This document shows positions 5,230-51,651 of a DNA stretch of 64,000 nt, piece after piece. Location: positions 30,025 through 94,024 of the forward strand of contig JAKMDI010000016.1 in the NCBI GenBank assembly GCA_022428005.1, in the 5' to 3' direction. Numbering within the stretch: position 1 is the stretch's first letter; every line of letters starts with the position of its first letter. Below the pieces are notes generated by a model. That model ran no database searches. It was not told where the DNA came from and saw only the letters and a program-made list of their open reading frames with translations. Made by a program: the position numbers and the translations under genes. The DNA comes from Flavobacteriaceae bacterium (GTDB lineage Bacteria; Bacteroidota; Bacteroidia; Flavobacteriales; Flavobacteriaceae).

Positions 5230-5237
5230 TATATTTG
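5230..5237 (+). promoter_or_regulatory. -7 box just before the GMC subunit 3 gene
   Basis: TATATTTG matches the TAnnTTTG consensus and ends 4 bases before the ATG at 5242. With the usual spacing, transcription would start at or next to the A of the ATG, implying a leaderless or nearly leaderless mRNA. Confidence 0.55.
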
Positions 5238-5241
5238 ATAT

Positions 5242-5736: not shown

Positions 5737-5743
5737 AATATAA

Positions 5744-7441
5744 ATGATGAGTAAAGCGAATCATTACGATACCATTGTAATCGGCGCAGGCATGACGGGA
5801 GGATGGGCTGCAAAAGAATTTTGTGAACAAGGACTCAAAACGTTACTGATAGACCGCGGTCGGAATGTGGAACATCCAAAAGATTACCCTACCACCAATA
5901 TGCTGCCTTGGGAATTTAAGCACCGTGGGGATATTCCTGCCGATATTAGAGCACAAAATCCCATCGCTTCCAGCTGTTATGCTTTCCGAGAAGACGCCAT
6001 GCATTTTTTTGTTAAAGATGGTGAGCATCCCTATGTGCAAACCAAGCCTTTTCAGTGGATCCGTGGTTATCAGGTGGGGGGTAAATCCATCATGTGGGCG
6101 CGCCAAGTACAGCGCTGGAGTGATCATGATTTTGAAGGCCCTGCCAGAGACGGATTTGCTGTGGATTGGCCCATCAGATACCGACACTTGGATCCCTGGT
6201 ATACCTATGTAGAGCGGTTTGTGGGTGTGAGTGGTAACAAAGACGGTTTAGACGTCCTCCCCGACGGAGATTTTCTCAAACCCTTTGGGACTAATTGTGT
6301 GGAGGATTATTTCAGCAATCAGATGAAAAAACACTACAAGGATAGACACGTCATCTATGGCAGGTGTGCTCATCTTACGGAGAGCAAGCCCATTTATGTA
6401 GCTCAGGGTAGGGGCCTGTGCGCCAGTAGAAAAGTATGCCAAAGGGGCTGCCCTTTTGGAGGGTATTTCAACGCAAATGCCACCTTGATCCCATGGGCGA
6501 TGAAGACGGGAAATCTTTCCTTAAAGACCGATGCCGTAGTCCATTCGATCATCTATGATAAAGACCTGAAAAAAGCCATTGGAGTTCGGGTGATTGATGC
6601 CCACAACAAAACGGTCACAGAATATTTCGCAAAAGTTGTTTTTCTCAATGCCTCCACCCTAAATACCAATTTGATACTGTTAAACTCTATTTCAGAACGT
6701 TTCCCCAACGGTTTGGGAAATGACAGCGGCCTGTTGGGTAAATACATTGCCTTCCACAATTATCGGGGTGTGATTTCTGCTACTTACGAAGGGCATAAAG
6801 ACCAAAAGGTGGAGGGTCGCAAACCCACTTCGGCTTACCTTCCGCGCTTCAGGAATGTTTACCGCCAAGAAACAGACTTTCTCAGGGGCTATGCCGCTGG
6901 TTTTGGTGCCAGTAAGCCCGTTCACTATGAAACCTCTGGTATGGGAGACCAATTGCACCACAACCTTATGAATGCCAAGACATCTGACGTTTGGAAAGTG
7001 GGTTCTCACATGATGGGAGAAACCATACCCAAGGAGAGTAATCAAGTGTCTTTAGACAATAAATTAGAAGATGAATGGGGGATTCCACAATTAAAAATAG
7101 ATGTGGATTATGACGACAACGATGAGAAAATGTTACAAGATTTCTTTGATGAATTTTCAGAGATGTATTCCAAAGCAGGCTTTACAAATATAAAAACAAG
7201 AGACAACGGTCGTAAGCCGGGTAATGATATTCATGAAATGGGCGGTGTTAGGATGGGTCACGACCCCAAAACCTCTCTACTCAACCAATGGAATCAAATG
7301 CATCATTGCGATAATGTTTACGTGACCGATGGTGCTTGTATGACTTCAACGGCAACACAAAACCCATCCCTTACGTTTATGGCATTGACAGCAAGAGCTG
7401 CAAACCATGCCATAGATCAACTAAAAAAGGGAAATATTTAG
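5744..7441 (+). CDS. GMC family FAD-dependent oxidoreductase
   Basis: The 565-residue protein is the catalytic flavin subunit of a GMC-type sugar or alcohol dehydrogenase. It opens with the FAD dinucleotide-binding motif (TIVIGAGMTGGWAAKEFCEQG), has the GMC region GGKSIMWARQVQRWS, and ends with HEMGGVRMGHDP and TDGACMTSTATQNPSLTFMALTARAA, where the active-site His/Asn pair is expected. Cysteines near residues 225-240 (LCASRKVCQRGCPFG) are typical of the membrane-linked subgroup. It has no leader of its own; co-export with the Tat-bearing subunit 3 is likely. Electrons may go to a cytochrome c encoded elsewhere. The stop shares TTAG with the FGE gene on the other strand. Two adjacent ATGs leave a one-codon start ambiguity. 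Confidence 0.9.
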   Translation: MMSKANHYDTIVIGAGMTGGWAAKEFCEQGLKTLLIDRGRNVEHPKDYPTTNMLPWEFKHRGDIPADIRAQNPIASSCYAFREDAMHFFVKDGEHPYVQTKPFQWIRGYQVGGKSIMWARQVQRWSDHDFEGPARDGFAVDWPIRYRHLDPWYTYVERFVGVSGNKDGLDVLPDGDFLKPFGTNCVEDYFSNQMKKHYKDRHVIYGRCAHLTESKPIYVAQGRGLCASRKVCQRGCPFGGYFNANATLIPWAMKTGNLSLKTDAVVHSIIYDKDLKKAIGVRVIDAHNKTVTEYFAKVVFLNASTLNTNLILLNSISERFPNGLGNDSGLLGKYIAFHNYRGVISATYEGHKDQKVEGRKPTSAYLPRFRNVYRQETDFLRGYAAGFGASKPVHYETSGMGDQLHHNLMNAKTSDVWKVGSHMMGETIPKESNQVSLDNKLEDEWGIPQLKIDVDYDDNDEKMLQDFFDEFSEMYSKAGFTNIKTRDNGRKPGNDIHEMGGVRMGHDPKTSLLNQWNQMHHCDNVYVTDGACMTSTATQNPSLTFMALTARAANHAIDQLKKGNI

Positions 7442-8478
7442 AGGTCTTTTACACATCTAAAACCCGTGTGTTGGGATCCAGTGTCTGGCGATGATTTCAT
7501 TTTAGAAGCCACCCTATAGCCTGAACAGTAGGTATCATTACATAGAAATGAGCCCCCCCGAATGATCCGCTGAGCGATGTAGGGATTGTAGGGGTCAAAA
7601 CTTTCCGAAGGACCTGCTGGGTTGTTCGTTGTTTTTCCTTTTAATGTCTTGTAATAGTCATAGTGGTACCAATCGGAACACCATTCCCAAACGTTTCCGG
7701 CCATGTCGTATAAACCATAGCCATTGGCTTCAAATGATTTTACAGGTGCGGAATAAAAGAATAAGTCTTTGTTTAAGTTGTCGTAGGGAAAAGTGCCCTC
7801 CCAACTGTTTGCTTTAACTGCACCCACCTCAATATCTTCGTCTCCCCAGGGGTATATTTTATCCCTAAGCCCACCTCGAGCAGCCCACTCCCACTCCGCT
7901 TCTGTAGGCAGTCTCTTACCCGCCCATTGTGCGTATGCATTGGCATCATCCCAAGAAACATGAACGACAGGGTGGTCTTCTTTTCCATCGATAGAGCTTC
8001 CTTTTCCTCTGGGTTGGCGCCAATTGGCTTTGGGTTTCCACTCCCACCAAGCAGCAAAATTATTCAAGTCCACAGGACCATTGGTGGGTTTAAAAATCAG
8101 TGAAGAAGCTTGCAGAAGAGAGTCGTGGGGTTTGGGTGTTCCCGGTGGCAGTTGTTCTTTCATTTCCTCCCAGTCAATGGGTTTTTCGGCAGTAGTAATA
8201 TATCCCGTTGCGGCCACAAAATCGGCAAACTGTGCATTGGTTACCTCCGTTTGATCAATCCAAAAACCATTTACTTTAACGCTATGGACTGGGCCCTCAT
8301 CGGGCCGGGCTTGTGGGCCATCACTCCCCATCATAAAGGTCCCTGAAGGGATCATAACCATCCCATTCGGAGGGGTTTTGGTTTCGATTTCTGCTTTACT
8401 TTTTTTTGTTTGAGAATCACAACCTATGAGTAGGCCCATAAGGAAGATTGTAAAAATATAATTGGATTTTAAACTCAT
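7438..8478 (-). CDS. Formylglycine-generating enzyme, lipoprotein form
   Basis: FGE oxidises the cysteine of the sulfatase motif C-x-P-S-R to formylglycine. The domain spans nearly the whole protein: MVMIPSGTFMMGSDG, VNGFWIDQTEVTNAQFADFV, VVHVSWDDANAYAQWAGKRLPTE, MAGNVWEWCSDWY and IIRGGSFLCNDTYCSGYR. The last segment keeps the C-x4-C cysteine pair (about residues 313 and 318) that matches the copper-binding catalytic pair of true FGEs, which separates it from many FGE-fold proteins. I start at the ATG at 8478 (MSLKSNYIFTIFLMGLLIGC) rather than the longer track start, because that gives a clean lipoprotein signal with lipobox LIGC. It is therefore predicted to act outside the cytoplasm. Three sulfatases lie 25-34 kb downstream. 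Confidence 0.85.
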   Translation of the reverse strand: MSLKSNYIFTIFLMGLLIGCDSQTKKSKAEIETKTPPNGMVMIPSGTFMMGSDGPQARPDEGPVHSVKVNGFWIDQTEVTNAQFADFVAATGYITTAEKPIDWEEMKEQLPPGTPKPHDSLLQASSLIFKPTNGPVDLNNFAAWWEWKPKANWRQPRGKGSSIDGKEDHPVVHVSWDDANAYAQWAGKRLPTEAEWEWAARGGLRDKIYPWGDEDIEVGAVKANSWEGTFPYDNLNKDLFFYSAPVKSFEANGYGLYDMAGNVWEWCSDWYHYDYYKTLKGKTTNNPAGPSESFDPYNPYIAQRIIRGGSFLCNDTYCSGYRVASKMKSSPDTGSQHTGFRCVKDL

Positions 8479-8523
8479 TTTTCTATCGTGAACCACAAAG
8501 ATGCTAATTTAAAGATTAACCGC

Positions 8524-8531
8524 TATATTTG
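8524..8531 (+). promoter_or_regulatory. -7 box upstream of the His-rich cluster
   Basis: TATATTTG matches TAnnTTTG and lies 24 bases before the ATG of the first gene of the putative metal-uptake cluster. No recognisable Zur or Fur operator is seen around it. Confidence 0.5.
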
Positions 8532-8555
8532 AATATAATTTTAATTAAGAAATAG

Positions 8556-8873
8556 ATGCCCATTAAGGTTTCAAAGTTTTTATTGTCGTCTTTATTGACA
8601 TGGATTTTGATGCTTCCCTATTGGGGCTCTTTTTCTCATATATTTGAAGGTCACGATCACAAAACCTGTGATATTTCAGAGACCCACTTTCATGAAATAG
8701 ATCTGGATTGTGATATATTAGATTATCATTTTTCTCCCCGAACAAACTTCTCACAAGACTTTGGTAGTGTTGTAGTTCTTAAAATCTCAAAGAAGAAATC
8801 TACTTCCTATGACCTTGGATATTGTTTTTTAATTGATACCCTCAGCACACTTCGAGGACCCCCCACTTCCTGA
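8556..8873 (+). CDS. Small His/Cys-containing exported protein of metal clusters
   Basis: The 105-residue protein has an N-terminal membrane or signal segment (SKFLLSSLLTWILMLPYWGSF) followed by a His/Cys-rich stretch (HIFEGHDHKTCDISETHFHEIDLDCDI) and ends in LRGPPTS. Small proteins with this plan, an N-terminal hydrophobic segment, His/Cys pairs and a terminal LRxPP, commonly precede TonB receptors or efflux genes for metals in Bacteroidetes, but no function is established that I know of. It leads a same-strand group with a His/Glu-rich lipoprotein and a ZnuD-like receptor, so a metal-related periplasmic role is inferred. Confidence 0.6.
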   Translation: MPIKVSKFLLSSLLTWILMLPYWGSFSHIFEGHDHKTCDISETHFHEIDLDCDILDYHFSPRTNFSQDFGSVVVLKISKKKSTSYDLGYCFLIDTLSTLRGPPTS

Positions 8874-8933
8874 CTTATTTTTTTGCACCCCAATGGGGTA
8901 AAGTAAGTTTATATCAATTTTAAATTAAATACC

Positions 8934-9530
8934 ATGTTTAAGAAATATTTATTAAATGCTTTTGTCTTATTGTGTTCCTTTTTGTTACCAATCAGCTGCT
9001 CCAAAGACAACGATACACCTGAACACATTCATGAAGAAGAGTTAATTACGCGTGTCACCCTAAAGATTAAAAAACAAGGATCTGCCGATGCAGCAGTTAC
9101 CTATACTTGGAATGATGATCATGAAGAAGAGGGGCACAGTGAAGAAGAAGAAGGTCACGATGAAGATGGCGTCCATGTTGAGTTAGAGGCCAATTCAACC
9201 TATGAGGTGGAGGTTGGTTTTTTTAATGCGTCTGACCCTGCTGATATTGAAGACATAACAGAAGAGGTAAAGGCTGAGGCCGATGAGCATCAGGTCTTTC
9301 TCGAGTTAATTGAAATTCAAGGCCTATCCATTGTAGCGGCTGCGAACGATTCCACGGACAGCAATGGCAACCCTTTGTTTCTAAAATCTGTGTGGACGAC
9401 TACAGCAGTTTCTGCTGGTGAGGTTAGGGTATATTTAATTCATGAACCCACCGCCAAGTCAGGATCAACACGTAATGATTTTGGTGGAGAGATCGATGTA
9501 AAAGTCGATTTCCATGTGGATGTTGAATAA
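8934..9530 (+). CDS. His/Asp/Glu-rich lipoprotein, probably surface exposed
   Basis: A lipoprotein signal (LLPISC) is followed by SKDND, which resembles the flavobacterial lipoprotein export signal (Cys-Ser-Lys-Asp-Asp type) that sends lipoproteins to the cell surface. Two low-complexity acidic/His segments follow (HIHEEE near residue 30 and DDHEEEGHSEEEEGHDEDGVH near 65-85), suitable for binding divalent metal. The rest is a beta-type domain ending in IDVKVDFHVDVE. The receptor gene begins 8 bases after the stop, so they are one transcript. I infer a metal-capturing partner of the receptor; no named family is assigned. Confidence 0.6.
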   Translation: MFKKYLLNAFVLLCSFLLPISCSKDNDTPEHIHEEELITRVTLKIKKQGSADAAVTYTWNDDHEEEGHSEEEEGHDEDGVHVELEANSTYEVEVGFFNASDPADIEDITEEVKAEADEHQVFLELIEIQGLSIVAAANDSTDSNGNPLFLKSVWTTTAVSAGEVRVYLIHEPTAKSGSTRNDFGGEIDVKVDFHVDVE

Positions 9531-9538
9531 GTTAAAAG

Positions 9539-11962
9539 ATGCTTACATTTAGCATGAGACTGAATAGACTGGTGCTGACACTTATTTTTGTCAGCACCGG
9601 TTTTGCTTTTTCCCAAGAATGCAATATTAAATTGAGGGGTAAAATTATTGATTTGCACGAAGACAGCCCCCTCGATAATGCCTTTATCCAAATTTTAGAG
9701 ACCAACCAAACGGCAGTTTCGTCGGCAAAGGGCGATTTTGTTTTTGATAATTTATGTCCAGGAAAAATTATTGTAAAAATCTCTCATATCAGTTGTGAGG
9801 ACTTGATCAAAGAGATCGATTTGAAAAAATCTATGGACATAAAATTCTTCATGGAACATCATATAGCGTTTTTAGAGGAGGTAATCATAGAAGAAAGCCA
9901 AGTGAAGAAACTGTCTTCAACTGCTAAGACCTATTTGCTTTCTGAGCGACAGCGCGACCGTTCCAGCAGTCAGGGTCTGGGAGTGGCCTTGGAAAACATC
10001 AGTGGTGTCAACAATATTAAAACCGGTAACAATATTGTAAAGCCTGTTATCCATGGAATGTTTGGAAGTCGAATTGGTATTATTTACAACGGTATACCTT
10101 TGGAAAATCAACAATGGGGTCAAGATCACGCCCCGACTATAGATCACAATGCTTTTGAAAATATCCGATTGATTAAAGGTGCGGGTACCTTAAAATACTC
10201 AGGAGACTCCCCAGGTGGGGTAATCGTTTTAGAATCTAAATCGCTTCCTATTCGGGACACCCTTTATGGAAAAACAATTATAAATGGAATGACCAATGGC
10301 CGTGGAGTAAATTTAATTAGCTCTTGGGTTAGGTCTTTTCAGAGTGGTAAATATTTTAAGATTCAAGGAACTTTAAAGAAAAACGGGGATTATTCAAGCC
10401 CAGATTATATCTTGTTGAATACTGGAAACGAGGAAAAAAATATCACCTTTTCTTTGGGTCGAAACAAAATTCTAAGCCAGTGGAAAGTGGGTTTTAGTTT
10501 TTTTAGTAATGAAATTGGAATTCTTAGGAGTTCCCATATTGGGAATGTAGATGATTTGTTGAGGGCCATTGAATCCAAATCACCACTTATCATTAATCCA
10601 TTTACTTATGATGTGAATGCCCCCAAACAAAAAAATAAACACCACACTGCTTTTTTTCAATATTCAAAGAGATACGATTTTAACAGCAAATTAAATTTCC
10701 AATACAGTTGGCAAAGGAATAACCGTCAGGAGTTCGATATCAGGCGGGGTGATAATAAGAACAAAGCTTCGGTCGATTTGCTCTTAAACACCCATATATT
10801 CAACTCAAACTATGAGTGGGGCAGGGGGGTAATGCGCCATGACTCAGGGATTTTTATGCAGATACAAGATAATTTTTCCAATCCCGACACCCAAGTTAAA
10901 AGATTGATACCAGACTATTTCAAAACCAAATACGGAAGCTATTTTACTACCACCATCACCCCGTCCAATGCAATTAATTACGATTTTGGAATCCGATGGG
11001 AAAGTCACCACAACTCAATTCAAAAATATTATGACAACAGACGTTGGGAAGCGGATCAATACGAATCTCTTTACGGAAGCTATGTCATTAAAGAAGTGGC
11101 AGGACAAAAACTGGTAAAACGCAAGCTTGTTTTTAATAATATTTCTGTCAATGCGGGAATGAATTTCAACTTGGGCGATGCCAAAGTATTGGGGCTAAAT
11201 TTTTATTTAACCCAACGTGCTCCAGATATATCGGAGATGTTCAGCGATGGTTTGCACCATGCCCTTGCCACCATAGAATATGGTGATCCCTCATTGACTC
11301 AGGAGACTACAAAAAAAGTAGTATTCAATTTTGAAAAAAATAAAGGAGCTTTACAGTACAGTATTGGCCCCTATTTAAGCTGGGCTCAGAATTTTATCAT
11401 CATAGAACCCGAAGGGCTGTTGCAAACCACCAGAGGGGCATTTCCTTTTTGGGAATTCAAGGCTGTAGACGCCATGCTAAAAGGTATTGATTTTGACCTT
11501 TCTTTTCAGATCAGCGATTATATAAGTTTTGAACACAGCAGTTCCTGGATTGATGGAATTAACCGAAATACCAAAACACCACTTATCAATATGCCCCCCG
11601 TAAACATCAGAAATCATTTCCTGTTTTCATTGCCTCGATGGAAATCATTTTTGATGGCTTTGACCAGTAATAATTTTTTAAGACAGAACCAATTCCCCGA
11701 TAATAATTTTTACACTGATGTTGTGGAAAATGGAAAAATTGTGAATAAACTAGTGGACATAAGTACGCCGCCAGATGCTTATCACCATATTGGAATGGAG
11801 ATGCATTGGGGACCTTATTCACTGAAGCATAATAAAATTAGGTTTTCTCTTATCTTTGATAATATGTTGAATACTAACTACAGAACGTACCTCAATAGGT
11901 TGCGATTTTATGCCGATGAAATGGGAAGGAATGTGATGTTACAAATCAAGTTTAACCACTAA
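9539..11962 (+). CDS. TonB-dependent outer membrane receptor, ZnuD-like
   Basis: This 807-residue outer membrane receptor has a signal peptide (LVLTLIFVSTGFAFSQ), a carboxypeptidase-regulatory-like domain (about 30-105), a plug (about 140-235) and a 22-strand type barrel. The plug contains GMFGSRIGIIYNGIPLENQQWGQDHAP, resembling the zinc/haem receptor ZnuD and its relatives in which a DHA motif follows the NGI turn. Together with the preceding His-rich proteins this suggests uptake of zinc or another divalent metal, which is inference. The start could be the ATG at 9539 or at 9554; the latter gives a more canonical signal peptide. A 9-bp hairpin lies inside the signal-peptide codons. Confidence 0.8.
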   Translation: MLTFSMRLNRLVLTLIFVSTGFAFSQECNIKLRGKIIDLHEDSPLDNAFIQILETNQTAVSSAKGDFVFDNLCPGKIIVKISHISCEDLIKEIDLKKSMDIKFFMEHHIAFLEEVIIEESQVKKLSSTAKTYLLSERQRDRSSSQGLGVALENISGVNNIKTGNNIVKPVIHGMFGSRIGIIYNGIPLENQQWGQDHAPTIDHNAFENIRLIKGAGTLKYSGDSPGGVIVLESKSLPIRDTLYGKTIINGMTNGRGVNLISSWVRSFQSGKYFKIQGTLKKNGDYSSPDYILLNTGNEEKNITFSLGRNKILSQWKVGFSFFSNEIGILRSSHIGNVDDLLRAIESKSPLIINPFTYDVNAPKQKNKHHTAFFQYSKRYDFNSKLNFQYSWQRNNRQEFDIRRGDNKNKASVDLLLNTHIFNSNYEWGRGVMRHDSGIFMQIQDNFSNPDTQVKRLIPDYFKTKYGSYFTTTITPSNAINYDFGIRWESHHNSIQKYYDNRRWEADQYESLYGSYVIKEVAGQKLVKRKLVFNNISVNAGMNFNLGDAKVLGLNFYLTQRAPDISEMFSDGLHHALATIEYGDPSLTQETTKKVVFNFEKNKGALQYSIGPYLSWAQNFIIIEPEGLLQTTRGAFPFWEFKAVDAMLKGIDFDLSFQISDYISFEHSSSWIDGINRNTKTPLINMPPVNIRNHFLFSLPRWKSFLMALTSNNFLRQNQFPDNNFYTDVVENGKIVNKLVDISTPPDAYHHIGMEMHWGPYSLKHNKIRFSLIFDNMLNTNYRTYLNRLRFYADEMGRNVMLQIKFNH
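9571..9598 (+). other. Perfect hairpin inside the receptor signal-peptide codons
   Basis: GGTGCTGAC, a 10-base AT-rich loop ending in T5, and GTCAGCACC form a 9-bp perfect stem. It lies 40 bases after the lipoprotein stop and 17-32 bases inside the receptor frame, depending on the start used. It could partly terminate, stabilise an mRNA end or limit translation so the receptor is made at a different level from the lipoprotein. Confidence 0.45.
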
Positions 11963-11966
11963 TCAT

Positions 11967-12530
11967 ATGAGACTTCGACACTTTTTAATCTTGCTTTTTT
12001 TGGCGGGATATCCTACTTTATTTTTTGCACAAGAATACGATGATGTCTACATAGAGCCAATCAATGATCCATCCGCCGACGGACAACGTTTTTTTGTTGA
12101 GGATTTATTGGACTTGGCGGGTTATGTTCCCGAAAACATTCAGATCTATCAAACCCTTCCCAATAAAGCCAGGGTATTTAGAGTCAAATTGGACAGTGTC
12201 AATGGGGGATTTGTTTTTGTGCGATGGGACAAAACCAAAAAGGAAAACTATGTGGCCAATAAGATGATTGACCCGGGTGTCTATTACAACCTGAAAGCGG
12301 CCAAGGAAATCATGAGAAAGCAAACCAATAAAGCTAATTTCACGGTAGATGACGTGTCACTTCAAGCGCCCGATCAAGAACAAATAAACTCCTCAGACAT
12401 CACCGAGCTAAGGGAGGAATTTGAACTCAAAAATGAGGAAAAAAAACTTCACGAGGAACAAGCTTCTGAGAAAAGAAAAGCAAGAGATACGCGCAGAGAA
12501 GAAAGGAAGAAGAAAAAACTATTTGATTAG
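11967..12530 (+). CDS. Secreted protein with highly charged C-terminal tail, unrecognised
   Basis: I do not recognise this 187-residue protein. It has a signal peptide (HFLILLFLAGYPTLFFAQ), a conserved-looking globular part (FFVEDLLDLAGYVPENIQIYQTLP, GGFVFVRWDKTKKENYV) and a helical, strongly charged tail of about 45 residues (EELRE ... KRKARDTRREERKKKKLFD) that may be a coiled coil. It follows the receptor by 4 bases and is probably the last gene of the metal cluster transcript. Its stop shares TTAG with the Rieske gene on the opposite strand. Confidence 0.6.
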   Translation: MRLRHFLILLFLAGYPTLFFAQEYDDVYIEPINDPSADGQRFFVEDLLDLAGYVPENIQIYQTLPNKARVFRVKLDSVNGGFVFVRWDKTKKENYVANKMIDPGVYYNLKAAKEIMRKQTNKANFTVDDVSLQAPDQEQINSSDITELREEFELKNEEKKLHEEQASEKRKARDTRREERKKKKLFD

Positions 12531-12988
12531 CGGTTCACCGTCAATATAGTGCCCTCAATCATGGTATTGTAGCAAGTAAGTTTTAGCCCGGAACCGGAGC
12601 AGTCGTCGCTAAAAGACCTGTTGTGATTGGAACAAACAAAATTGGAGTTTTGATGGGACCACTGGTTGTTTGCCCCTGCATGAGGACATACATTACTGAA
12701 AGCCCGAATTTGGGTGTCGCTGATTCTCAGCAATAGCATATTTTCATCCATGTAATTCATCCAACCGCCCACTGAAGCCAGCTGAGAAAAATTAGAGTTA
12801 TTTAAATCGATGGTTACAGCCGCGTCTTGAGATGTGCCAGAATTCATGCCTCCACCATTGGAAACAGGTGCAGCTGAATATCCATCATCGTCACCTGAAC
12901 TGCAGGCTTCGAGCATTGAAATCCCAAACATTGAAAAAACCACTGGTGCGCAAGCCGTTTTTAAAAAATCTCTTCTTTTATTTTCCAT
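12527..12988 (-). CDS. Rieske [2Fe-2S] protein, Tat lipoprotein
   Basis: The 153-residue protein has a twin-arginine leader (MENKRRDFLKTACAPVVF) that ends in a lipobox (LEAC), followed by SSGDDDG, which could act as a surface-export signal. The C-terminal half carries both Rieske cluster motifs: CPHAG (C-x-H) and CSNHNRSF (C-x2-H). It is therefore an exported iron-sulfur electron carrier, not part of a bc1 complex by context. The natural partner is unknown; the Tat-exported GMC dehydrogenase 5 kb away is one candidate. It is transcribed towards the metal cluster and overlaps its last gene by four bases. Confidence 0.85.
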   Translation of the reverse strand: MENKRRDFLKTACAPVVFSMFGISMLEACSSGDDDGYSAAPVSNGGGMNSGTSQDAAVTIDLNNSNFSQLASVGGWMNYMDENMLLLRISDTQIRAFSNVCPHAGANNQWSHQNSNFVCSNHNRSFSDDCSGSGLKLTCYNTMIEGTILTVNR

Positions 12989-13085
12989 AGCATATTAAGA
13001 TTTAAACACATTCAAAGATATGAATATAGTTTAACAATTTTATAAAAATGTTAAACAAAATTAATATGCATTAGAAACTTTAATC

Positions 13086-13093
13086 TATTTTTG
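13086..13093 (+). promoter_or_regulatory. -7 box that decides the start of the next receptor gene
   Basis: TATTTTTG overlaps the TTG at 13091 used by the ORF track. Transcription from this box would begin around 13098, so translation must start at the ATG at 13109, about 10 bases into the message. Confidence 0.6.
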
Positions 13094-13108
13094 CCCAAAA
13101 ATACTTCT

Positions 13109-15472
13109 ATGCTCAAGCATCTGTACTTAATACTGATAGTATTAGATTTTCATCATTCAATTGCCCAAACCACGGGTCAATTTTCAGGAAGGGTACTCGA
13201 TCAGCAAACCCAGCTGCCGATTCCTGGGGTGACCGTTCTGTTAGAAGGAACGGTAATTGGGGTTGTTACAAACGATGAGGGGTACTTTTCTTTTGAAGAC
13301 ATTCCACCCAGAACTTACAACCTTGTGGTCCGCCATTTGGGTTATCAATCTCAAACGGTCTTTAATATAATTGTCAAAACATTCGGTACGCCCCCCTTGC
13401 AAATATTGATGGAGGAATCCTCGGATGCGTTGGATGAAATAGTTGTTTTTCAGAGCCCTTTCAGGACTTCAATAGAGACGCCATTGTCCACACAAACCTT
13501 TTCTGCCGTTGAAATTGAAACCTATCCAGGAGGCAACAACGATATTACCAAAGTCATTCAAAGTATGCCCGGAATATCACCTTCTATTGGTGGGTTTAGA
13601 AATGATATTATCATTAGGGGAGGTGCACCCAATGAATCTGTTTATTATCTCGATGGAATAGAAATTCCAAACATTAATCATTTTAGCACCCAAGGCAGTG
13701 CAGGAGGACCTGTGGGGATGTTAAACGTATCTTTTATTCGAGAGGTCACCCTTTCGAGTTCCGCTTTTGGAGCCGAATATGACAATCCACTGTCAGGGGT
13801 TTTGTCTTTTGAACAAAGATCAGGAAATCCCAACAGGTTTGGAGGGAATTTCAGATTGGGAGCAAGCGAAGCGGCTTTGACGCTCGAGGGACCCTTGTTT
13901 CGAAAAGACAAAGAAAAGCCAGCAAAAACCACCTTGCTTTTTTCTGTGAGGAGGAGCTATCTTCAATTTCTTTTTGAATTGATTGGTTTGCCCATAAGAC
14001 CAGATTATTGGGATTTCCAATGGAAAGTAAATCATGAAATTGATGCTTACAACACCCTTACCTTTCTCGGCTTGGGAACGGTTGATGACTTTTCGGTAAA
14101 AGCTCCTGATGATTTTGATGCAGAGCAGCAGGCGACCATTGAACAAGTACCCATTATTGAACAGAAAACCATTACGGTTGGAGTGTCGTGGAATAGGAAA
14201 TATAAAAATGGAAAGGGCGCCATGACCACTGCCATCAGTACCAACAGATTACAAAATATTTTTTCTCGATATCGGGACAACACTCAAAAAACGGGGATTA
14301 TTTTTAAAAATGATTCCTATGAGCAAGAGACCAAGCTTCGCTATCAGACCCTACACTATTTGAATGAGTGGAAATTGGCTGCTGGAACCAATATTCAGTA
14401 TGCTGACTATTTCAATGACACCCAAAGCATACTTTATAATATCAACTACAGCACGGGAATAGATTTTTTAAAATATGGGTTTTTTGCCAAGGGAGAACGA
14501 AAATTTTTTGATGACAATCTCGGTTTATCATTTGGTTTTAGATTCGATGCAGACACCTTTTCAGAGGGATCCAGCTTAATGGACAATTTCTCACCGCGTC
14601 TTTCCCTGACATACAACCTCACAGAGGACCAAACTTGGAAGATGAATGCCTCGGTGGGAAGATATTATAAAATACCCACCTACACTATGCTGGGGTATCA
14701 GGACAACCTGAGAACGTTCATAAATCAGAAGGCCAAATACACCCAAAGCGATCATTTCGTGATGGGAATAGAATACGCACCGGGCAATGCCTCAAGGGTA
14801 ACCCTTGAAGGATTTTATAAAAAATACAGCCAATACCCAATATCACTCATAGATGGGGTGTCAATAGCAAATAAAGGAGGCGATTTTGAGGTCTTGGGGA
14901 ACGAGGCCATAGCTACAGACGGACGAGGAAAAAGTTATGGAATAGAGGCATTGTACCAACAAAAACTCACTAAAAATTTCTATGGTGTTTTTGCCTACAC
15001 CTATTTCCACAGTCAATTTACCACAGCCAATGGGGACTATTTGCCCTCGGTTTGGGACAGTCGAAACTTGATCTCTTTTTCTGGTGGATATAAGTTAAAA
15101 AGAAACTGGGAGATTAGTGCGCGCTGGCGTTTTTCTGGAAAAACCCCCTATGTTCCAGTGGATCAAATTGCATCTTTGTCGGCCTATCCCGAGATTGTAT
15201 TGGACTACAATCAGTTGGGAAATGTTAAGTTGGACCCCTTTAATTTGGCAGATATCAGGTTTGATAAAAAGTGGAATTTTAAACGCTATGCATTTAATTT
15301 TTATTTTGAGATTCAAAATTTCTTAGCCCAGGCAGTACCCAGACCGGAGGAATATGGACTCAATAGATCTGAAACAGGAGCGCTGATATTGCCGAGATCC
15401 TTGGTAAAGGTAAACACGGACGAAAATAATAATATCCCCATTCCCACTTTTGGGTTTGTGGTGGATTTTTAG
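13109..15472 (+). CDS. TonB-dependent receptor
   Basis: At 787 residues from the chosen ATG this is an outer membrane TonB-dependent receptor. It has a signal peptide (MLKHLYLILIVLDFHHSIAQ), a carboxypeptidase-regulatory-like domain (GRVLDQQTQLPIPGVTVLLEG, about 25-105), a plug with NDITKVIQSMPGISPSIGGFRNDIIIRGG and VYYLDGIEIPN, and a long barrel ending in an aromatic residue (FGFVVDF). The track start at the upstream TTG lies within the -7 promoter box and is rejected. No SusD partner follows and the substrate is not evident. It stands alone and its stop is 2 bases from the convergent rimM stop. Confidence 0.85.
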   Translation: MLKHLYLILIVLDFHHSIAQTTGQFSGRVLDQQTQLPIPGVTVLLEGTVIGVVTNDEGYFSFEDIPPRTYNLVVRHLGYQSQTVFNIIVKTFGTPPLQILMEESSDALDEIVVFQSPFRTSIETPLSTQTFSAVEIETYPGGNNDITKVIQSMPGISPSIGGFRNDIIIRGGAPNESVYYLDGIEIPNINHFSTQGSAGGPVGMLNVSFIREVTLSSSAFGAEYDNPLSGVLSFEQRSGNPNRFGGNFRLGASEAALTLEGPLFRKDKEKPAKTTLLFSVRRSYLQFLFELIGLPIRPDYWDFQWKVNHEIDAYNTLTFLGLGTVDDFSVKAPDDFDAEQQATIEQVPIIEQKTITVGVSWNRKYKNGKGAMTTAISTNRLQNIFSRYRDNTQKTGIIFKNDSYEQETKLRYQTLHYLNEWKLAAGTNIQYADYFNDTQSILYNINYSTGIDFLKYGFFAKGERKFFDDNLGLSFGFRFDADTFSEGSSLMDNFSPRLSLTYNLTEDQTWKMNASVGRYYKIPTYTMLGYQDNLRTFINQKAKYTQSDHFVMGIEYAPGNASRVTLEGFYKKYSQYPISLIDGVSIANKGGDFEVLGNEAIATDGRGKSYGIEALYQQKLTKNFYGVFAYTYFHSQFTTANGDYLPSVWDSRNLISFSGGYKLKRNWEISARWRFSGKTPYVPVDQIASLSAYPEIVLDYNQLGNVKLDPFNLADIRFDKKWNFKRYAFNFYFEIQNFLAQAVPRPEEYGLNRSETGALILPRSLVKVNTDENNNIPIPTFGFVVDF

Positions 15473-15474
15473 AA

Positions 15475-15999
15475 TTATTTAAAAATATCCAATAGGCCTT
15501 CTGGAAGTTCGAAGTGTATCTTTTTATTTTTTTTGTCCAGTTTCTTGATAAAGTTATCGTGAACCGGGATCAATATTTCCGTACCCGCTGAGTCAATTAC
15601 AAAAAGCGCTTGAGGACCTGCATCATTAACCGCGGTGATCCTTCCAATGGATTTTCCGTCGTCAGCGATGGCATAGAAATCGATCACCTCGTGGTAGTAA
15701 AATTTATCGTCCTCTAGTGGTGCCAACATATTTAAAGGTAAATAGACTTCTTTTTTAATTAATTCGGATGCATCACTTTCTGAATCTACACCTTCAAATT
15801 TTACCCTTAAAAGCGCCGATTTGTGCAAGCGACACTGGTCAATAAAATAAGGTACCAAACCTTCGGAAGTGGTTACAAAAAGCGAGTTGAGGTCGGCATA
15901 ATCGCTGGGTGTGTCCGTATCTAATTTTAAAAGAATTTCACCTTTAAAGCTGTATTTTCCAACAATGGTTCCCAAGAAGAAACAGTCTTCTTTAAGCAT
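15475..15999 (-). CDS. rimM: Ribosome maturation factor RimM
   Basis: RimM assists assembly of the head of the 30S subunit and binds S19. The 174-residue protein shows the N-terminal RimM barrel (FFLGTIVGKYSFKGEILLKLDTDTP) and the PRC-like C-terminal domain (YYHEVIDFYAIADDGKSIGRITAV ... VIDSAGTEILIPVHDNFIKKLD). It is encoded 21 bases after rpsP on the same strand, the usual rpsP-rimM pairing. Confidence 0.95.
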   Translation of the reverse strand: MLKEDCFFLGTIVGKYSFKGEILLKLDTDTPSDYADLNSLFVTTSEGLVPYFIDQCRLHKSALLRVKFEGVDSESDASELIKKEVYLPLNMLAPLEDDKFYYHEVIDFYAIADDGKSIGRITAVNDAGPQALFVIDSAGTEILIPVHDNFIKKLDKKNKKIHFELPEGLLDIFK

Positions 16000-16020
16000 G
16001 ATGATTTAGAGGAGAAACGA

Positions 16021-16716
16021 TTATTCTTTTGATTCCGTCTCTTCGTTGGACGTTTCCTCCGTTTGAGGTGCTTCTTCAGCAGCAGAAGTTTCTTCAACAG
16101 CGGGTGCTTCTTCGGCAACAGGAGTTTCTTCAACAGCAGGTGCTTCTTCAGACTCAGGCGCTGCCTCAGCAGCAGGTGCTTCTTCCGTAGCGGGTGTTTC
16201 TTCGGATTCAGGCGCTGCCTCAGCAGCAGGTGCTTCTTCTGTAGCGGGTTCTTCTTCGGATTCAGGCGCTGCAGTTAGGTCTTCAATTCTTTTCTGATTG
16301 ACAGCTTTTTCAGCCTCTAATCGATCACTGAGATCTTTGGCTTTATCTTTGTCCAATCCGTCAATTTTTGCCTGAATTTTGGCTTGTTTCTCTTCCAACC
16401 AAGCAGCAAAACGCTTGTCGGCTTCTTCTTGTGAAAAAGCACCTTTCGAGACTCCCCCATTGAGGTGATGTTTCATCATCGCGCCTCGATAAGACAGAAG
16501 TGTTCTGGCAGTATCAGAGGGTTGTGCTCCGTTTTCAAGCCATTCCACAGCTTTGTCAACATTTAAGTTTACTGTCGCTGGATTGGTGTTGGGGTTGTAA
16601 GTTCCAATTTTTTCTAAATAACGACCATCGCGTTTGGCGCGGCTGTCCGCTGCTACTATCCAATAAAATGGGCTACCTTTTTTTCCGTGTCGTTGAAGTC
16701 TAATCCTTACGGGCAT
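16021..16716 (-). CDS. rpsP: 30S ribosomal protein S16 with long repetitive acidic tail
   Basis: Residues 1-80 are normal S16 (MPVRIRLQRHGKKGSPFYWIV, GRYLEKIGTYNP, DTARTLLSYRGAMMKHHLNGG). A basic helical extension follows (about 80-155, VSKGAFSQEEADKRFAAWLEEK), and the last 75 residues are Glu/Ala/Pro/Thr repeats (EEAPAAEAAPESEETPAT units). Total length is 231 against about 80-90 in E. coli. Flavobacterial S16 proteins often carry an extension, but the repeated tail looks unusually long. It should lie on the surface of the 30S subunit. It is first in an rpsP-rimM operon with a good promoter upstream. Confidence 0.92.
   Translation of the reverse strand: MPVRIRLQRHGKKGSPFYWIVAADSRAKRDGRYLEKIGTYNPNTNPATVNLNVDKAVEWLENGAQPSDTARTLLSYRGAMMKHHLNGGVSKGAFSQEEADKRFAAWLEEKQAKIQAKIDGLDKDKAKDLSDRLEAEKAVNQKRIEDLTAAPESEEEPATEEAPAAEAAPESEETPATEEAPAAEAAPESEEAPAVEETPVAEEAPAVEETSAAEEAPQTEETSNEETESKE
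16150..16272. repeat. 54-bp tandem repeat in the rpsP tail
   Basis: The string GGCGCTGCCTCAGCAGCAGG starts at 16157 and recurs exactly 54 bases on at 16211; its first bases recur again at 16265. Each unit encodes 18 residues, so copy-number change would keep the frame. About 2.3 copies are present, with more diverged Glu/Ala-rich units towards the stop. Confidence 0.8.
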
Positions 16717-16769
16717 ATCATATTAATTTATGGAGGTTCTCGACCGCCTGGTTATTAATTCTAAGGGTG

Positions 16770-16798
16770 CAAATTTAATATATTATTTTAAATAACAA
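16770..16798 (-). promoter_or_regulatory. rpsP-rimM promoter
   Basis: On the minus strand TTG, an 18-base spacer and TAAATTTG match the Bacteroidetes -33/-7 arrangement. The start would fall about 50 bases before the rpsP ATG, leaving a leader long enough for ribosomal-protein feedback, though I see no clear structure in it. Confidence 0.6.
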
Positions 16799-16870
16799 AC
16801 CTGAACCAAATAATATATGACCATTCGAAAAAAAATAGTGCTGTTCCAGATTGTATGAACGCACAACGGC

Positions 16871-16901
16871 TTGGCAAACCAGATTAAAAAATGTACTTTT
16901 G
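16871..16901 (+). promoter_or_regulatory. tig-clpP-clpX promoter
   Basis: TTG, a 20-base spacer and TACTTTTG fit the flavobacterial promoter pattern. The expected transcription start near 16906 is downstream of the TTG proposed in the ORF track, which supports the ATG at 16925 as the tig start. Confidence 0.65.
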
Positions 16902-16924
16902 CGCCCATATTTTTGCCATTTCAT

Positions 16925-18253
16925 ATGAACATTTCACGTAAAGACACTGACGCCCTAAACACTACCGTTACCATTGCTGTAGAACGCAACGATTTTCAAG
17001 AAAAAGTAAATAAAGTTCTTTCGGATTACCGTAAAAACGCCAATGTGCCTGGATTTAGAAAAGGTCATGTTCCGATGGGCATGATCAAGAAACAATACGA
17101 AACTGCGGTTACTGCAGACGAGGTTAATAAATTATTACAGGAAAAATTAGAGGCATACCTCAAAGAGGAAAACCTAAAAACTTTGGGAAATCCACTACCG
17201 GTGTTAAAGGACGATTTGGATTGGAAATCAGCCAAAATTGATTTTGATTTTGAATTGGGCTTGTCCCCCGAGTTTGAGGTGAACCTGACTGCCAAGAACA
17301 AAGTCACGCACTATCAAATCACGGCAAGTAATGATATGATTAATGACCAAATTATCTATTATCGCAAGCAATACGGCAAATTGGTGGCCCAGCCACATGC
17401 CAAAGATGATTTTGAAATAACTGCAGTTGTAAAAAATGAAGCTGCTGAAATCGATACGACCCCCACTTTCGAATTGAGTCAAATAAAAGGAAAAGCCAAT
17501 TTGACAGCACTCAAAAAAGCAAAAGTCGGAGACATCGTAAAATTAAAAGCCAAAAACTTATTTAAAGACGAGGCCACTGCTACCAGAGTTCTCACTATCT
17601 CGGCAGATAAGATCAATGAGATTGAGGGTGAGCTCGAATTTGACATCAAAGAAATTAACGAGCGTGTATTAGCGGAAATTAATCAAGAATTTTTTGATAA
17701 AATATATGGTCCTGAAGCGGTAAAGTCAGAGGACGAGATGAAAGCCAAAATTACAGAGGGGTTGGAAAAACAATTCGAGCAACAATCGGATCAGAAATTA
17801 CTCAACGATGTTACTGAATATTTAGTTTCCAAAACCAAATTTGATTTACCAGAGGTGTTTCTAAAAAAATGGATGCAAAATTCTGGAGAAAAGCCGATGA
17901 CTGTTGCGGAAGCTGCTGAAGAATACGATCGATCCGAAAAAGGAATCAGGTACCAGCTTATTGAGGGTAAAATCATTGATGAGCACGATCTTCAAATTAA
18001 ATTCGAAGAGCTTAAAGAATTCGCCAAGGAGATGATTTTAATGCAAATGGCACAATATGGTCAGGCGGGCTTACCCGACGAAGAGTTGGATGGAATTGTG
18101 GCCAGAGTAATGTCAAACCAAGACGAAACACGAAGGATTTCTGAACAATTGATGAGCAAAAAGCTCTTGGAATTCTACAAAACTAACCTCACCCTTAAAA
18201 AGAAAAAATTGCCCTTCGACGCATTTGTGAAAGAGGCATATGGACAAGGCTAA
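16925..18253 (+). CDS. tig: Trigger factor
   Basis: Trigger factor is the ribosome-bound chaperone and peptidyl-prolyl isomerase for nascent chains. The N-terminal ribosome-binding domain contains the tail-loop signature NVPGFRKGHVPMGMIKKQY (near residues 39-57). A divergent central domain (about 140-235) and a helical C-terminal domain follow. The 442-residue length from this ATG is normal. The extra 18 codons of the track ORF cover the promoter and are rejected. The central domain lacks an obvious FKBP signature, as in many Bacteroidetes. clpP follows 34 bases downstream, forming the classical tig-clpP-clpX group. Confidence 0.92.
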   Translation: MNISRKDTDALNTTVTIAVERNDFQEKVNKVLSDYRKNANVPGFRKGHVPMGMIKKQYETAVTADEVNKLLQEKLEAYLKEENLKTLGNPLPVLKDDLDWKSAKIDFDFELGLSPEFEVNLTAKNKVTHYQITASNDMINDQIIYYRKQYGKLVAQPHAKDDFEITAVVKNEAAEIDTTPTFELSQIKGKANLTALKKAKVGDIVKLKAKNLFKDEATATRVLTISADKINEIEGELEFDIKEINERVLAEINQEFFDKIYGPEAVKSEDEMKAKITEGLEKQFEQQSDQKLLNDVTEYLVSKTKFDLPEVFLKKWMQNSGEKPMTVAEAAEEYDRSEKGIRYQLIEGKIIDEHDLQIKFEELKEFAKEMILMQMAQYGQAGLPDEELDGIVARVMSNQDETRRISEQLMSKKLLEFYKTNLTLKKKKLPFDAFVKEAYGQG

Positions 18254-47743: not shown

Positions 47744-48589
47744 TCAATTGAGCATATCAATAGCTGAGATCCAGTTGATCATGTTGTCAAACCATTGATC
47801 CACAGGGTAGCCTTTTTTTCTCATCCCAAATCCATGATCGCCATGGTGGTAATTATGAAGTTCACTGATAAAACCTCGCTCAGCCCAATCGATATATAGT
47901 TCAGCGCTGGGAATGGCAAGCGCTAACTTATCTGCCGTGGTGCAAACTACAAACAAAGGAGGTCCGTAGGCGGGAGGCTCTTGACCTTCAACAATCACCA
48001 TCCAGGGGTAAATAGGAGCTACAAAATTTGGTCGGTTCTTTGGGTTGGATTTATAAGTTGCCTCAATTGAAACTGCTCCTCCTGCTGAAAATCCCATAAT
48101 ACCGATTTTCTGTGGGTCAATATTGTATTTTACAGCGTTGTTTCTTAGGTGTTGGATGGCATTCAGGGCATCTAAATGGCCATACGAAAGTTGTTTCTTT
48201 TCTTTGGTGTAAGGTTCATTGAGTCCTTCTTTTTTACCGATGAGATGGGAGGGAACCAACCTGTATTTTAAAATAAAAGCAGCAATTCCTTTACTGTTTA
48301 GTGCTTTTGCAACATGAGTGCCTTCATGAAAAAAAGCATTGGAACGCATGCCGCCCCCTGGGCAGACGATCATGGCAGTAGTCGCTTTGGCCTTACCCCT
48401 GGGTAAATATATTTCTATCGTAGGAATCGATATGTTATTAAATTTGTACTCACCTGGAGCTGAGCCTTGAGTTTTAAACTCTGTACCTTTGTAATTCAGT
48501 CCGGTATTATCATATTCAAGAGTAACAATTTCCTGGCTTTGTAAATGGAAAGTGGAAATTAAAACGAGAAGTTTCATGTGTTTTTTCAT
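47744..48589 (-). CDS. Exported alpha/beta hydrolase (BD-FAE/xylanase-esterase-like)
   Basis: From the ATG at 48589 the protein has 281 residues with a short signal peptide (MKLLVLISTFHLQSQ); the track start is a TTG six codons earlier and another ATG lies at 48577. It has the oxyanion segment VCPGGGMRSNAF, the nucleophile elbow IGIMGFSAGGAVS and catalytic His in HHGDHGFGMRKKG. The pattern is that of carbohydrate esterases in polysaccharide loci (acetyl- or feruloyl-type). It would remove ester groups in the periplasm, complementing sulfatases and the CE15 enzyme. It ends 6 bases from the convergent barrel gene. Confidence 0.82.
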   Translation of the reverse strand: MKKHMKLLVLISTFHLQSQEIVTLEYDNTGLNYKGTEFKTQGSAPGEYKFNNISIPTIEIYLPRGKAKATTAMIVCPGGGMRSNAFFHEGTHVAKALNSKGIAAFILKYRLVPSHLIGKKEGLNEPYTKEKKQLSYGHLDALNAIQHLRNNAVKYNIDPQKIGIMGFSAGGAVSIEATYKSNPKNRPNFVAPIYPWMVIVEGQEPPAYGPPLFVVCTTADKLALAIPSAELYIDWAERGFISELHNYHHGDHGFGMRKKGYPVDQWFDNMINWISAIDMLN

Positions 48590-48737
48590 TTTGAAGGTTT
48601 TTTCCAATAAAAAATTAATTAGAAGTGACTACCGAAGATAATTAAAAGTTGTTATGAGTAGAAAAATTTTCTTTGGAGCATCTTCCATTAGAATACAATA
48701 TAATTTTTTAATTTAAGAGTTCTAAATAACCTTTGGT

Positions 48738-50171
48738 TTGAAATCAATTAAAATCATAAAAAAAATATTATTGATTTTTGCTTTGGTCTTTATTGACCAA
48801 GTTTTTGGGCAAGAAATACCGCCCATAAAGCATCATAAACCAGCTATTTCTTTTGCTGGAAATCAAAATTGGATGATCACTCAGGATCAAAATGGGATAA
48901 TTTTCACTGCCAATAACAAAGGTTTGTTACAATTCGGAGGAGAAGAGTGGGAATTAAATGCAAGTCCAAATCAATCAATCATCCGTTCTGTCAAGGTAAT
49001 TGACAATAGAATATGCGTTGGCAGCTATATGGATTTTGGATATTGGGAACGATTATCAAATGGAGAATTAAACTACACCTCCCTTGCTGAGAAGTTAAAT
49101 ATAGATATTATTGATGATGAGCAATTCTGGAATATCATTGAGTATGGCGAGAGAATCATTTTTCAGTCTCTAAACCGCCTTATTATTACAGATATTGCCA
49201 ATAAAGAGCTACAATTTATCAATGCAGAAAACACCCTTCTAAAGTCTTTTAAAGTGGATAACAAAATCTACTATTAGGAGTCAGGCAAGGGTTTGTATGA
49301 GGTTAGAGGAGGTCGGGCTTTTCTGGTCAACCAAGGTCAAATCATCAAAGACAATGTGATTGTTGGGCTTTATAAAAAAGACGGTAAGTTGTTAATAGTA
49401 ACAGATAAATCCGGCTTTTACTTCTTGGAAGATGACCAATTAACAAAATGGGCAATAAATGCTGAAAAAAATATTGATGGTTTTAGACTTTATTCTTCAA
49501 GTGAATTATCTGATGGAAGTTATGCTTTGGGAACTATTTCCAATGGTTTATTTATAATCGATTCGGATGGAAATAATAAAATAACGCTTAATAAAGGTAA
49601 TGGGATCTCCAACAATACCGTTTTGTCCATGTTCGAGGATCAAAACAAAAACCTATGGTTAGGACTTGATAACGGGGTCGATTGCATCAATGTAAACTCC
49701 CCTTTCCGAGAATATAACGATAATGATGGAAAAATTGGTGCGGTTTACGCTTCTGCTGAAAAAGGAAATTACTTTTATTTGGGCACCAACCATGGACTTT
49801 TTTACAGAATCGTTGGGCAAGATGGGGGTTTCAAATTAATTCCAGGCACAGAGGGGCAAGTATGGAGCTTGAATAAGTTTGACGATGCCCTTTTTTGTGG
49901 GCACGACATAGGAACGTTTTATGTTGACAGAGATAAAGCATTTAGGATTGGTGATACTCAAGGGACCTGGACCTTTAAAAGGCATCCAAAAGACAACAAC
50001 AAACTACTACAGGGAAATTATAATGGTATCCATGTACTTGAAAAACAAGGAAATAAATGGAAGTATAAAAATAAATTGACTGGTTTTGACATTTCTTCAA
50101 GGTTTTTTGAGGTCGTTAACGATTCTATACTTTTAGTGGGGCATGAATATAAAGGCGCAGAAAATCGGTAA
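48738..50171 (+). pseudogene. Two-component-type ligand-binding sensor, broken by a nonsense codon and a 3' deletion
   Basis: Signal peptide (LLIFALVFIDQVFGQ) and then propeller repeats of the type found in flavobacterial sensors with a triple-tyrosine domain and C-terminal HTH or kinase (NWMITQDQNGIIFTANNKGLLQF, NNTVLSMFEDQNKNLWLGLDNG, GFDISSRFFEVV). The frame is continuous from 48738 to about 50157 except for TAG at 49275-49277; IYY-stop-ESGKGLYEV looks like a single CAG to TAG change. After the conserved-looking GHEYKG the sensor ends abruptly and transporter sequence begins in another frame. The triple-tyrosine, membrane and HTH parts are missing. The start is TTG. It probably regulated the neighbouring polysaccharide genes before loss. 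Confidence 0.85.
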
Positions 50172-50652
50172 GAAGAAATCATTTATTATCACACAGGGAA
50201 TATCCATAATTGGATACATCCTTTTTTGGTTTTTATTTGTTCCTGGGAAACCTTATTATTTTATATATGCTTTACCGTTTTTCTCGTTTGGAATTGGAGG
50301 CTTGTTCACCTTGATGATGAGCATGACTGCCGATGTATGTGACTTGGATGAACTTCAAAACGGACTACCTAGAAAAGAGGCTACTTTTGGTGCTATATAT
50401 TGGCTCATGGTAAAATTTGGATATGCCATTGCCGGTCTTTTAAGTGGATTGATTATGACATTGGTGGGATTTGACCCCAACATACCTGAGCAACCTGAGG
50501 GTGCTGTTTTTTGGTTAAGAGTGGTGTACTCTGTTTTTCCGATATTAGGGACCCTATTGGCCATCTATGTGATGCGAAACTATGAGATTTCTGAGGAAAG
50601 AGCGATGGAAATTAAAACCCAACTAAGAGACAAGAAACTGAAAAAAGAATAA
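50143..50652 (+). pseudogene. 3' remnant of a GPH-family sugar/cation symporter (MFS)
   Basis: The remnant codes for the last 160 or so residues of a glycoside-pentoside-hexuronide type symporter: KIGKKKSFIITQGISIIGYILFWF, GIGGLFTLMMSMTADVCDLDE, GLPRKEATFGAIYWLMVKFG, and the final helices with VYSVFPILGTLLAIYVMRNYEISEE. A full transporter has about 450-500 residues, so the N-terminal two thirds are missing. The ATG in the track is supplied by the sensor remnant upstream; the true junction is at about 50150-50162. No function is expected unless the piece is expressed as a fusion, which the frame change argues against. Confidence 0.88.
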
Positions 50653-50694: not shown

Positions 50695-51651
50695 TTAAGA
50701 ATTTTGGAATTTTTTTAGTTTTTCTATTAAAGCGGGGACCACTTCAAAAGCATCGCCTACAACACCATAATCAGCAGCTTTAAAAAAGGGAGCTTCTGGA
50801 TCGTTGTTGATCACTACCTTTACTTTTGAGGCATTGATTCCTGCCAAGTGTTGGATGGCTCCAGACACACCCACGGCAATATACAGATTGGTAGCAACAG
50901 GCTTCCCCGTTTGGCCGACATGCTCGCTGTGTGGCCGCCAACCCATGTCAGAAACAGGTTTGGAGCAGGCAGTAGCCGCTCCCAAAACGTCTGCCAAATC
51001 TTCGATGAGATGCCAGTTTTCAGGACCTTTGAGCCCGCGACCCCCAGAAATCACAATGTCAGCGTCTGCAATGGTAACTTTTCCAGTTACTTTTTCCACT
51101 TTTTCAATTTGAAGGGATCCAGAGGAAGGACTGATTTCTCCTGATTTAACACTAAGAGGAGTAGATTTTTTATGGGCGCCAAATGCATTATTTGACAAAC
51201 CAATGATATTGATTTCATTTTTCAGAATCGTGGTATTAAATGCTTTGTTGGAATAACAAGTTCGCTTTACTGTCAAGGGAGCATAACTTTCCGGAAGGGC
51301 AACAACGTTGGAGGCGTATCCAGCCATTAGCGCCACAGACAATATAGGTGCCAAATATTTTGCATCTGCACTGGAACTCAATACCACCAGATCAACATTA
51401 ATTTCTTTAGCAGTAGAAACCAGGTGAACGCCATATTCATGGGCTTTAAAAGCAGATAACGTCGGATCCTCATAGCTGATGACCTTGTTTACACCGTATT
51501 CAGACAAAGAGCTTGGATCGCTTAAATTAAAAACGACTGCAATCAGATCGCATTCTTTTTTATCTGCAACGGCCCTGCCGTAAGAGGCCAACTCAAACGC
51601 AGATTTTTTTAAAAGGTTATTTTCAGACTCAGCGTAAATTAGTACCGCCAT
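50695..51651 (-). CDS. etfA: Electron transfer flavoprotein alpha subunit
   Basis: EtfA with EtfB passes electrons from acyl-CoA dehydrogenases to the respiratory chain. The 318-residue protein has the N-terminal ETF fold (MAVLIYAESENNLLKKSAFELA) and the C-terminal FAD-binding domain (SGGRGLKGPENWHL, GQTGKPVATNLYIAVGVSGAIQHLAG). It starts 10 bases after etfB, forming the etfBA operon. It lies in a fatty-acid-oxidation neighbourhood. Confidence 0.95.
   Translation of the reverse strand: MAVLIYAESENNLLKKSAFELASYGRAVADKKECDLIAVVFNLSDPSSLSEYGVNKVISYEDPTLSAFKAHEYGVHLVSTAKEINVDLVVLSSSADAKYLAPILSVALMAGYASNVVALPESYAPLTVKRTCYSNKAFNTTILKNEINIIGLSNNAFGAHKKSTPLSVKSGEISPSSGSLQIEKVEKVTGKVTIADADIVISGGRGLKGPENWHLIEDLADVLGAATACSKPVSDMGWRPHSEHVGQTGKPVATNLYIAVGVSGAIQHLAGINASKVKVVINNDPEAPFFKAADYGVVGDAFEVVPALIEKLKKFQNS

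What the first reader, a model, noticed from the sequence alone, without database searches (positions are those of the whole stretch)
48738..50652. Deletion scar: a broken sensor gene runs directly into the 3' end of a sugar symporter
Seen directly: propeller-repeat sensor sequence continues until HEYKG near 50155 and then, in another frame, becomes the last third of a GPH/MFS symporter. The sensor also holds an in-frame TAG at 49275. From family knowledge the missing parts are the triple-tyrosine, membrane and HTH (or kinase) part of the sensor and about two thirds of the transporter, plus anything between. The simplest reading is one deletion joining two genes of a sugar-utilisation locus, with a separate nonsense mutation. 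It would explain the absence of SusCD and glycoside hydrolases here: the core of the locus may have been removed.
Basis: partly seen in the sequence, partly recalled or inferred. Interest (0 to 1): 0.72.

Follow-up and report, generated by a model that had tools for sequence, protein, structure and literature searches.

The report
Scar of a deleted laminarin locus
In this uncultured marine Flavobacteriaceae genome a deletion of roughly 16 kb has removed a laminarin (algal storage sugar) utilisation gene cluster, leaving only the front of its first gene (the sensor) joined to the back of its last gene (a sugar transporter); it is a clear and well-supported case of an ordinary process, gene-cluster loss.

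Summary
The observation and its interpretation both hold. The sensor fragment (48738-50155, in-frame TAG at 49275) runs directly into the last third of a GPH symporter (from 50156-50159 to 50652). Five congeneric genomes carry the rest of the sensor gene, and their blastn matches all stop at exactly 50155; a sixth carries the symporter, and its match starts at 50159. In G017 the same two flanks enclose the whole cluster: triple-Y/HTH sensor, SusC, SusD, lipoprotein, GH16 laminarinase, GH149-like phosphorylase, GH17 laminarinase, GH158-like enzyme and GPH symporter, then ETF-alpha. The two breakpoints lie 16.2 kb apart there. The window's 82%-complete genome has no GH16, GH17 or GH3 match, but contig C12 starts with a GH158-like fragment plus an intact GPH paralogue, so total loss of beta-glucan use is not shown. 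The site varies across the genus: of 22 genomes, 9 carry a cluster or one of its ends, 9 are empty, 2 carry scars and 2 are unresolved. The second scar (G012) is independent: sensor start fused out of frame to a GH3 end, with 4-bp microhomology. The sensor remnant still shows low dN/dS, so the deletion is recent. PUL loss is known; the value is a clean, phylogenetically placed example.

The parts
48738..50155 (+). 5' half of a triple-Y/HTH PUL sensor gene (propeller part, about 470 of 931 codons), pseudogene
   Evidence: Homology to the 931-946 aa sensors of G017, G010, G014, G004, G009 (and to the frameshifted one of G018); ends at 50155 in all five congeners matched by blastn; Reg_prop hit
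49275..49277 (+). in-frame TAG in the sensor fragment
   Evidence: Relatives have a glutamine codon here; one search counts '1 TAG' inside the match
50154..50159 (.). deletion junction; 50156-50158 cannot be assigned to either side
   Evidence: Sensor blastn matches stop at 50155, symporter match starts at 50159
50156..50652 (+). 3' third of a GPH/MFS_2 sugar symporter gene, 5' two thirds missing; a fortuitous ATG at 50143 in sensor DNA opens a 169-codon frame
   Evidence: PF13347 profile positions 283-426; 83% DNA and 84% protein identity to G008; alignment
47744..48607 (-). alpha/beta hydrolase, intact left flank of the cluster site
   Evidence: BD-FAE/Abhydrolase_3 hits; conserved beside the PUL or the empty site in most congeners
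50695..51651 (-). ETF alpha subunit gene, intact right flank (convergent)
   Evidence: PF00766/PF01012; next to the end of the PUL in G017, G008, G018, G004, G014

Best explanation
A laminarin (beta-1,3-glucan) utilisation locus stood between the alpha/beta hydrolase and ETF-alpha genes. One deletion of about 15-16 kb, with one end inside the first gene (sensor, after about codon 470) and the other inside the last gene (GPH symporter, at about codon 316 of 479), removed SusC, SusD, the surface lipoprotein, the glycoside hydrolases and the phosphorylase. The joined remnants are in different frames and cannot make a working sensor or transporter. The deletion is recent relative to the split from the other species, and most likely arose by illegitimate or microhomology end-joining. 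Shown: the joint, the intact locus in relatives, the absence of the missing genes from this assembly, an independent scar at the same site. Inferred: the single step, the joining mechanism, the substrate.
For: Sensor homology of five congeners stops at the same base, 50155, and symporter homology begins at 50159. In G017 the ordered cluster sensor-SusC-SusD-lipoprotein-GH16-GH149-GH17-GH158-like-GPH lies between the same flanks, with 16.2 kb between the homologous breakpoints (22862 and 6622 of its contig). Substrate: the GH17 matches solved structure 6fcg at E 2e-155, the 1155-aa protein matches the beta-1,3-oligosaccharide phosphorylase 6hq6 at E 0, the GH16 matches laminarinases, and the 337-aa enzyme matches GH158 weakly. 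G000 has no GH16, no GH3, no GH17 homologue, and no copy of the sensor's C-terminal half. A second, different deletion joint of the same kind is present in G012. Recent: window-branch omega 0.05, omega = 1 for the whole branch rejected (2 dlnL = 36.9); a neutral phase of 0.15 substitutions per codon already costs 2.7 log units.
Against: No reads were available, so the joint rests on an assembled MAG contig. Synonymous sites are saturated, so dating is coarse. The symporter fragment is more similar to G008 (84% protein) than the flanks are (ETF-alpha 68%), while G017's symporter is only about 64% identical to G008's, so the cluster may have been exchanged between lineages and its exact content in this species is unknown. 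Several successive deletions would leave the same result.
Confidence: 0.92

Rival explanations
1. Assembly error: the contig joins two unrelated pieces at 50155 and the cluster is really intact in the organism.
For: The genome is an assembly of 23 contigs, 82% complete; no read data.
Against: Both sides of the joint continue into the neighbours that flank the intact cluster in relatives. No GH16, GH17, GH3 or sensor C-terminus is found on any other contig. The in-frame TAG independently marks the sensor gene as broken.
Confidence: 0.04
2. The sensor died first by the nonsense mutation (and perhaps start-codon loss); the cluster became useless and was deleted later, possibly in more than one step. 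This is a different order of events, compatible with the deletion itself.
For: TAG at 49275 and ATA in place of the relatives' ATG start are extra lesions beyond the deletion.
Against: Both could equally have accumulated after the deletion; the fragment has no frameshift in 1.4 kb.
Confidence: 0.4
3. The remnant is a functional novelty: a short propeller protein or a 169-aa transporter piece made from the joint and kept by selection.
For: Low omega in the sensor fragment and an open frame for the symporter piece with a fortuitous ATG.
Against: The low omega is that expected from the functional gene before the deletion on a long branch. The propeller frame holds a TAG and lacks its membrane and HTH parts. 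For the symporter piece omega = 1 on the window branch fits no worse than the background value.
Confidence: 0.03

Closest known systems
Laminarin PULs of marine Flavobacteriia (Formosa PULs, PMC6246565; variants A-C in PMC6794258)
   Same: The intact loci in congeners have SusC/SusD with GH16 plus GH17, GH149 or GH3; GH16+GH3 corresponds to variant A (G004, G018, G009), GH16+GH17 resembles variant B (G017)
   Different: In the window only the first and last gene remain, both truncated. The G017 locus ends in a separate GPH symporter, not in the MFS-GH17 fusion described for Formosa; a GH30 was not seen, though not searched for by profile
Gain and loss of PULs among related Bacteroidetes
   Same: Presence/absence at one chromosomal site between sister species; [quoted passage not shown]
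   Different: Here the loss is caught with its breakpoints, twice, by different deletions at the same site

Membership tests
Deletion remnant of a laminarin PUL | Intact PUL between the same flanking genes in relatives | tested here: met
   G017 complete; G018, G004, G014 with related clusters between the same flanks
Deletion remnant of a laminarin PUL | Homology of both remnants stops at the joint | tested here: met
   50155 in five genomes, 50159 in G008
Deletion remnant of a laminarin PUL | Beta-1,3-glucan enzymes in the intact locus | tested here: met
   GH16, GH17 (6fcg), GH149 type (6hq6), GH158-like; by sequence only, activity not tested
Deletion remnant of a laminarin PUL | Missing genes absent elsewhere in the genome | tested here: inconclusive
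   None found in the assembly, but it is 82% complete and C12 begins inside a GH158-like gene followed by an intact GPH
Deletion remnant of a laminarin PUL | Reads span the joint | not testable with these tools
   No reads available
Triple-Y PUL sensor (functional) | Propeller + Y_Y_Y + transmembrane + output domain in one open frame | tested here: not met
   The window copy has only the propeller, with a TAG; relatives have Reg_prop, Y_Y_Y and a C-terminal HTH. It is a pseudogene of that family

The most novel reading that the evidence does not exclude
The hydrolase/ETF-alpha interval is a hot spot in this small-genome marine genus, where whole laminarin clusters are repeatedly exchanged between lineages and repeatedly deleted, so that scars here record recent switches away from laminarin use.
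Probability: 0.35. Interest if true: 0.5.

Novelty: new member of a known kind. Interest (0 to 1): 0.3.

Why it matters
Laminarin is a major algal storage sugar in the sea, and which planktonic bacteria can eat it is set by gain and loss of such clusters. A mapped deletion with intact, empty and scarred sister genomes at one site lets the direction (loss, not failure to gain) and the mechanism be read directly, which presence/absence tables cannot do. It also warns against annotating the two remnants as a working sensor and transporter.

Tried and rejected
A shared direct repeat at the two ends was looked for by comparing the joint with G017, G010 and G008: none; the ancestral symporter bases just before the joint cannot be recovered. 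G021, which has 1.9 kb between the flanks, was suspected of being a third scar; it holds an unrelated open frame of about 600 codons. G009 has the cluster, but inverted between the same flanks, so it was not used to place breakpoints, only as a sensor outgroup. The symporter omega estimate for the window branch alone hit its upper bound and is uninformative. A paper search for PUL deletion and pseudogenes gave nothing relevant.

Full report
Setting. The window is bases 30025-94024 of contig C19 of a 1.72 Mb, 23-contig, 82% complete assembly.

Observation. The sensor frame starts at 48738 (TTG), meets TAG at 49275-49277, and is otherwise open to 50171. In the genus the sensor match ends at 50155 in each of G017, G010, G014, G018 and G004, at 65-72% DNA identity, and the symporter match starts at 50159 in G008 at 83% identity. 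Printed side by side, all five relatives continue past the shared bases into the rest of the sensor, whereas the window continues into the symporter. Matches from five genomes stopping at one base is not a chance effect.

The intact locus. G017 carries, in order between the same flanks: sensor (931 aa; Reg_prop, Y_Y_Y, C-terminal HTH), SusC (1068), SusD (521), lipoprotein (489), GH16 (336), a 1155-aa protein, GH17 (427), a 337-aa enzyme and the GPH symporter (479), which converges on ETF-alpha exactly as in the window. Against solved structures the 1155-aa protein is a beta-1,3-oligosaccharide phosphorylase (6hq6; the GH149 label is own knowledge, the family is named for laminarin PULs in PMC6246565), the GH17 matches 6fcg at E 2e-155, the GH16 matches laminarinases and the 337-aa enzyme matches GH158 weakly. 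This is the enzyme set reported for marine laminarin PULs (PMC6246565, PMC6794258). The distance between the two homologous breakpoints in G017 is 16.2 kb (positions 22862 and 6622 of its contig). In G008 the same end order is seen without the GH17 (GH16-GH149-GH158-like-GPH start on C19, GPH end next to ETF-alpha on C51; joining the two contigs is inferred), so the deleted stretch was probably 15-16 kb.

What is lost. The window's genome has no GH16, GH3 or GH17 match, and no other copy of the sensor's second half. It has six SusD-family genes elsewhere, so it keeps other PULs. Contig C12 starts inside a GH158-like gene followed by an intact GPH paralogue, the same last pair as in the G017 cluster. 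A second beta-glucan locus could therefore exist in the unassembled part, and I do not claim that the organism cannot use laminarin.

The site across the genus. Cluster or one of its ends present: G017, G018, G004, G014, G019, G010, G008, G001, and G009 (inverted between the same flanks). Empty: G016, G011, G013, G005, G006, G007 (hydrolase kept), G002, G015 (hydrolase also gone), and G021 (unrelated gene there). Scars: G000 and G012. Unresolved: G003 and G020. In a tree of the flanking genes (OMP, ETF-alpha, ETF-beta) cluster-bearing and cluster-lacking genomes are close relatives four times: G001/G002, G008/G013, G018/G012 and G019/(G006,G007), with support 95-100. Changes at this site are therefore repeated; the two scars prove loss in at least two cases, while in the others gain is not excluded. 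G012's scar joins sensor codons 1-75 out of frame to the last 97 codons of the GH3 gene. Its close relative G018 has both genes, nearly identical, and the joint lies in the 4-bp word AAAT common to both.

Age. A codon model on the sensor fragment gives omega 0.05 for the window branch against 0.06 elsewhere; omega = 1 on the whole branch is rejected (2 dlnL 36.9). Adding a neutral phase costs 1.3 log units at 0.10 and 2.7 at 0.15 substitutions per codon, so the gene was functional for most of the branch and died late. Synonymous saturation makes this an upper limit only. For the 163-codon symporter piece a short neutral phase fits slightly better, not significantly. A single nonsense codon and no frameshift in 1.4 kb agree with a young pseudogene. 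The relatives' ATG start reads ATA in the window, a possible further lesion.

A complication. The symporter piece is 84% identical in protein to G008's, while ETF-alpha beside it is only 68%, and the G008 and G017 symporters are about 64% identical although these two species fall in one group (support 85). The cluster, or its end, has probably moved between lineages in the genus. This does not affect the reading of the joint.

Verdict. The process, loss of a PUL by deletion, is known; the interest lies in the clean breakpoints, the independent second scar and the mosaic of full, empty and scarred sites.

Noticed in passing
L121 (G012:C5) 2063-2564: Independent deletion scar at the same site: sensor codons 1-75 joined out of frame to the last 97 codons of a GH3 gene, with AAAT microhomology.
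   Followed up: yes
L021 (G000:C12) 1-2125: Contig start cuts a GH158-like gene followed by an intact GPH symporter: a possible second beta-glucan locus in the window's genome.
   Followed up: partly
window 50159-50637 against L017 (G008) 9985-10462: Symporter remnant is far more similar to G008 (83% DNA) than the ETF genes beside it (69%), suggesting transfer of the cluster between lineages.
   Followed up: partly
L127 (G018:C24) 1-3117: Second copy of the left flank with a sensor stub at the contig end and a heavily broken outer-membrane protein gene, in a genome that also has the cluster on C4; could be a contaminant or another strain.
   Followed up: no
L020 (G009:C115) 1-13933 and L126 (G009:C147) 24-2143: The cluster appears inverted in place: the sensor start faces ETF-alpha's end and the GH3 end faces the alpha/beta hydrolase.
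   Followed up: partly
L018 (G018) 10956-17192: In G018 the sensor and SusC genes of the otherwise complete cluster are themselves split by frameshifts or stops, so this cluster may also be decaying, or the assembly has errors.
   Followed up: no
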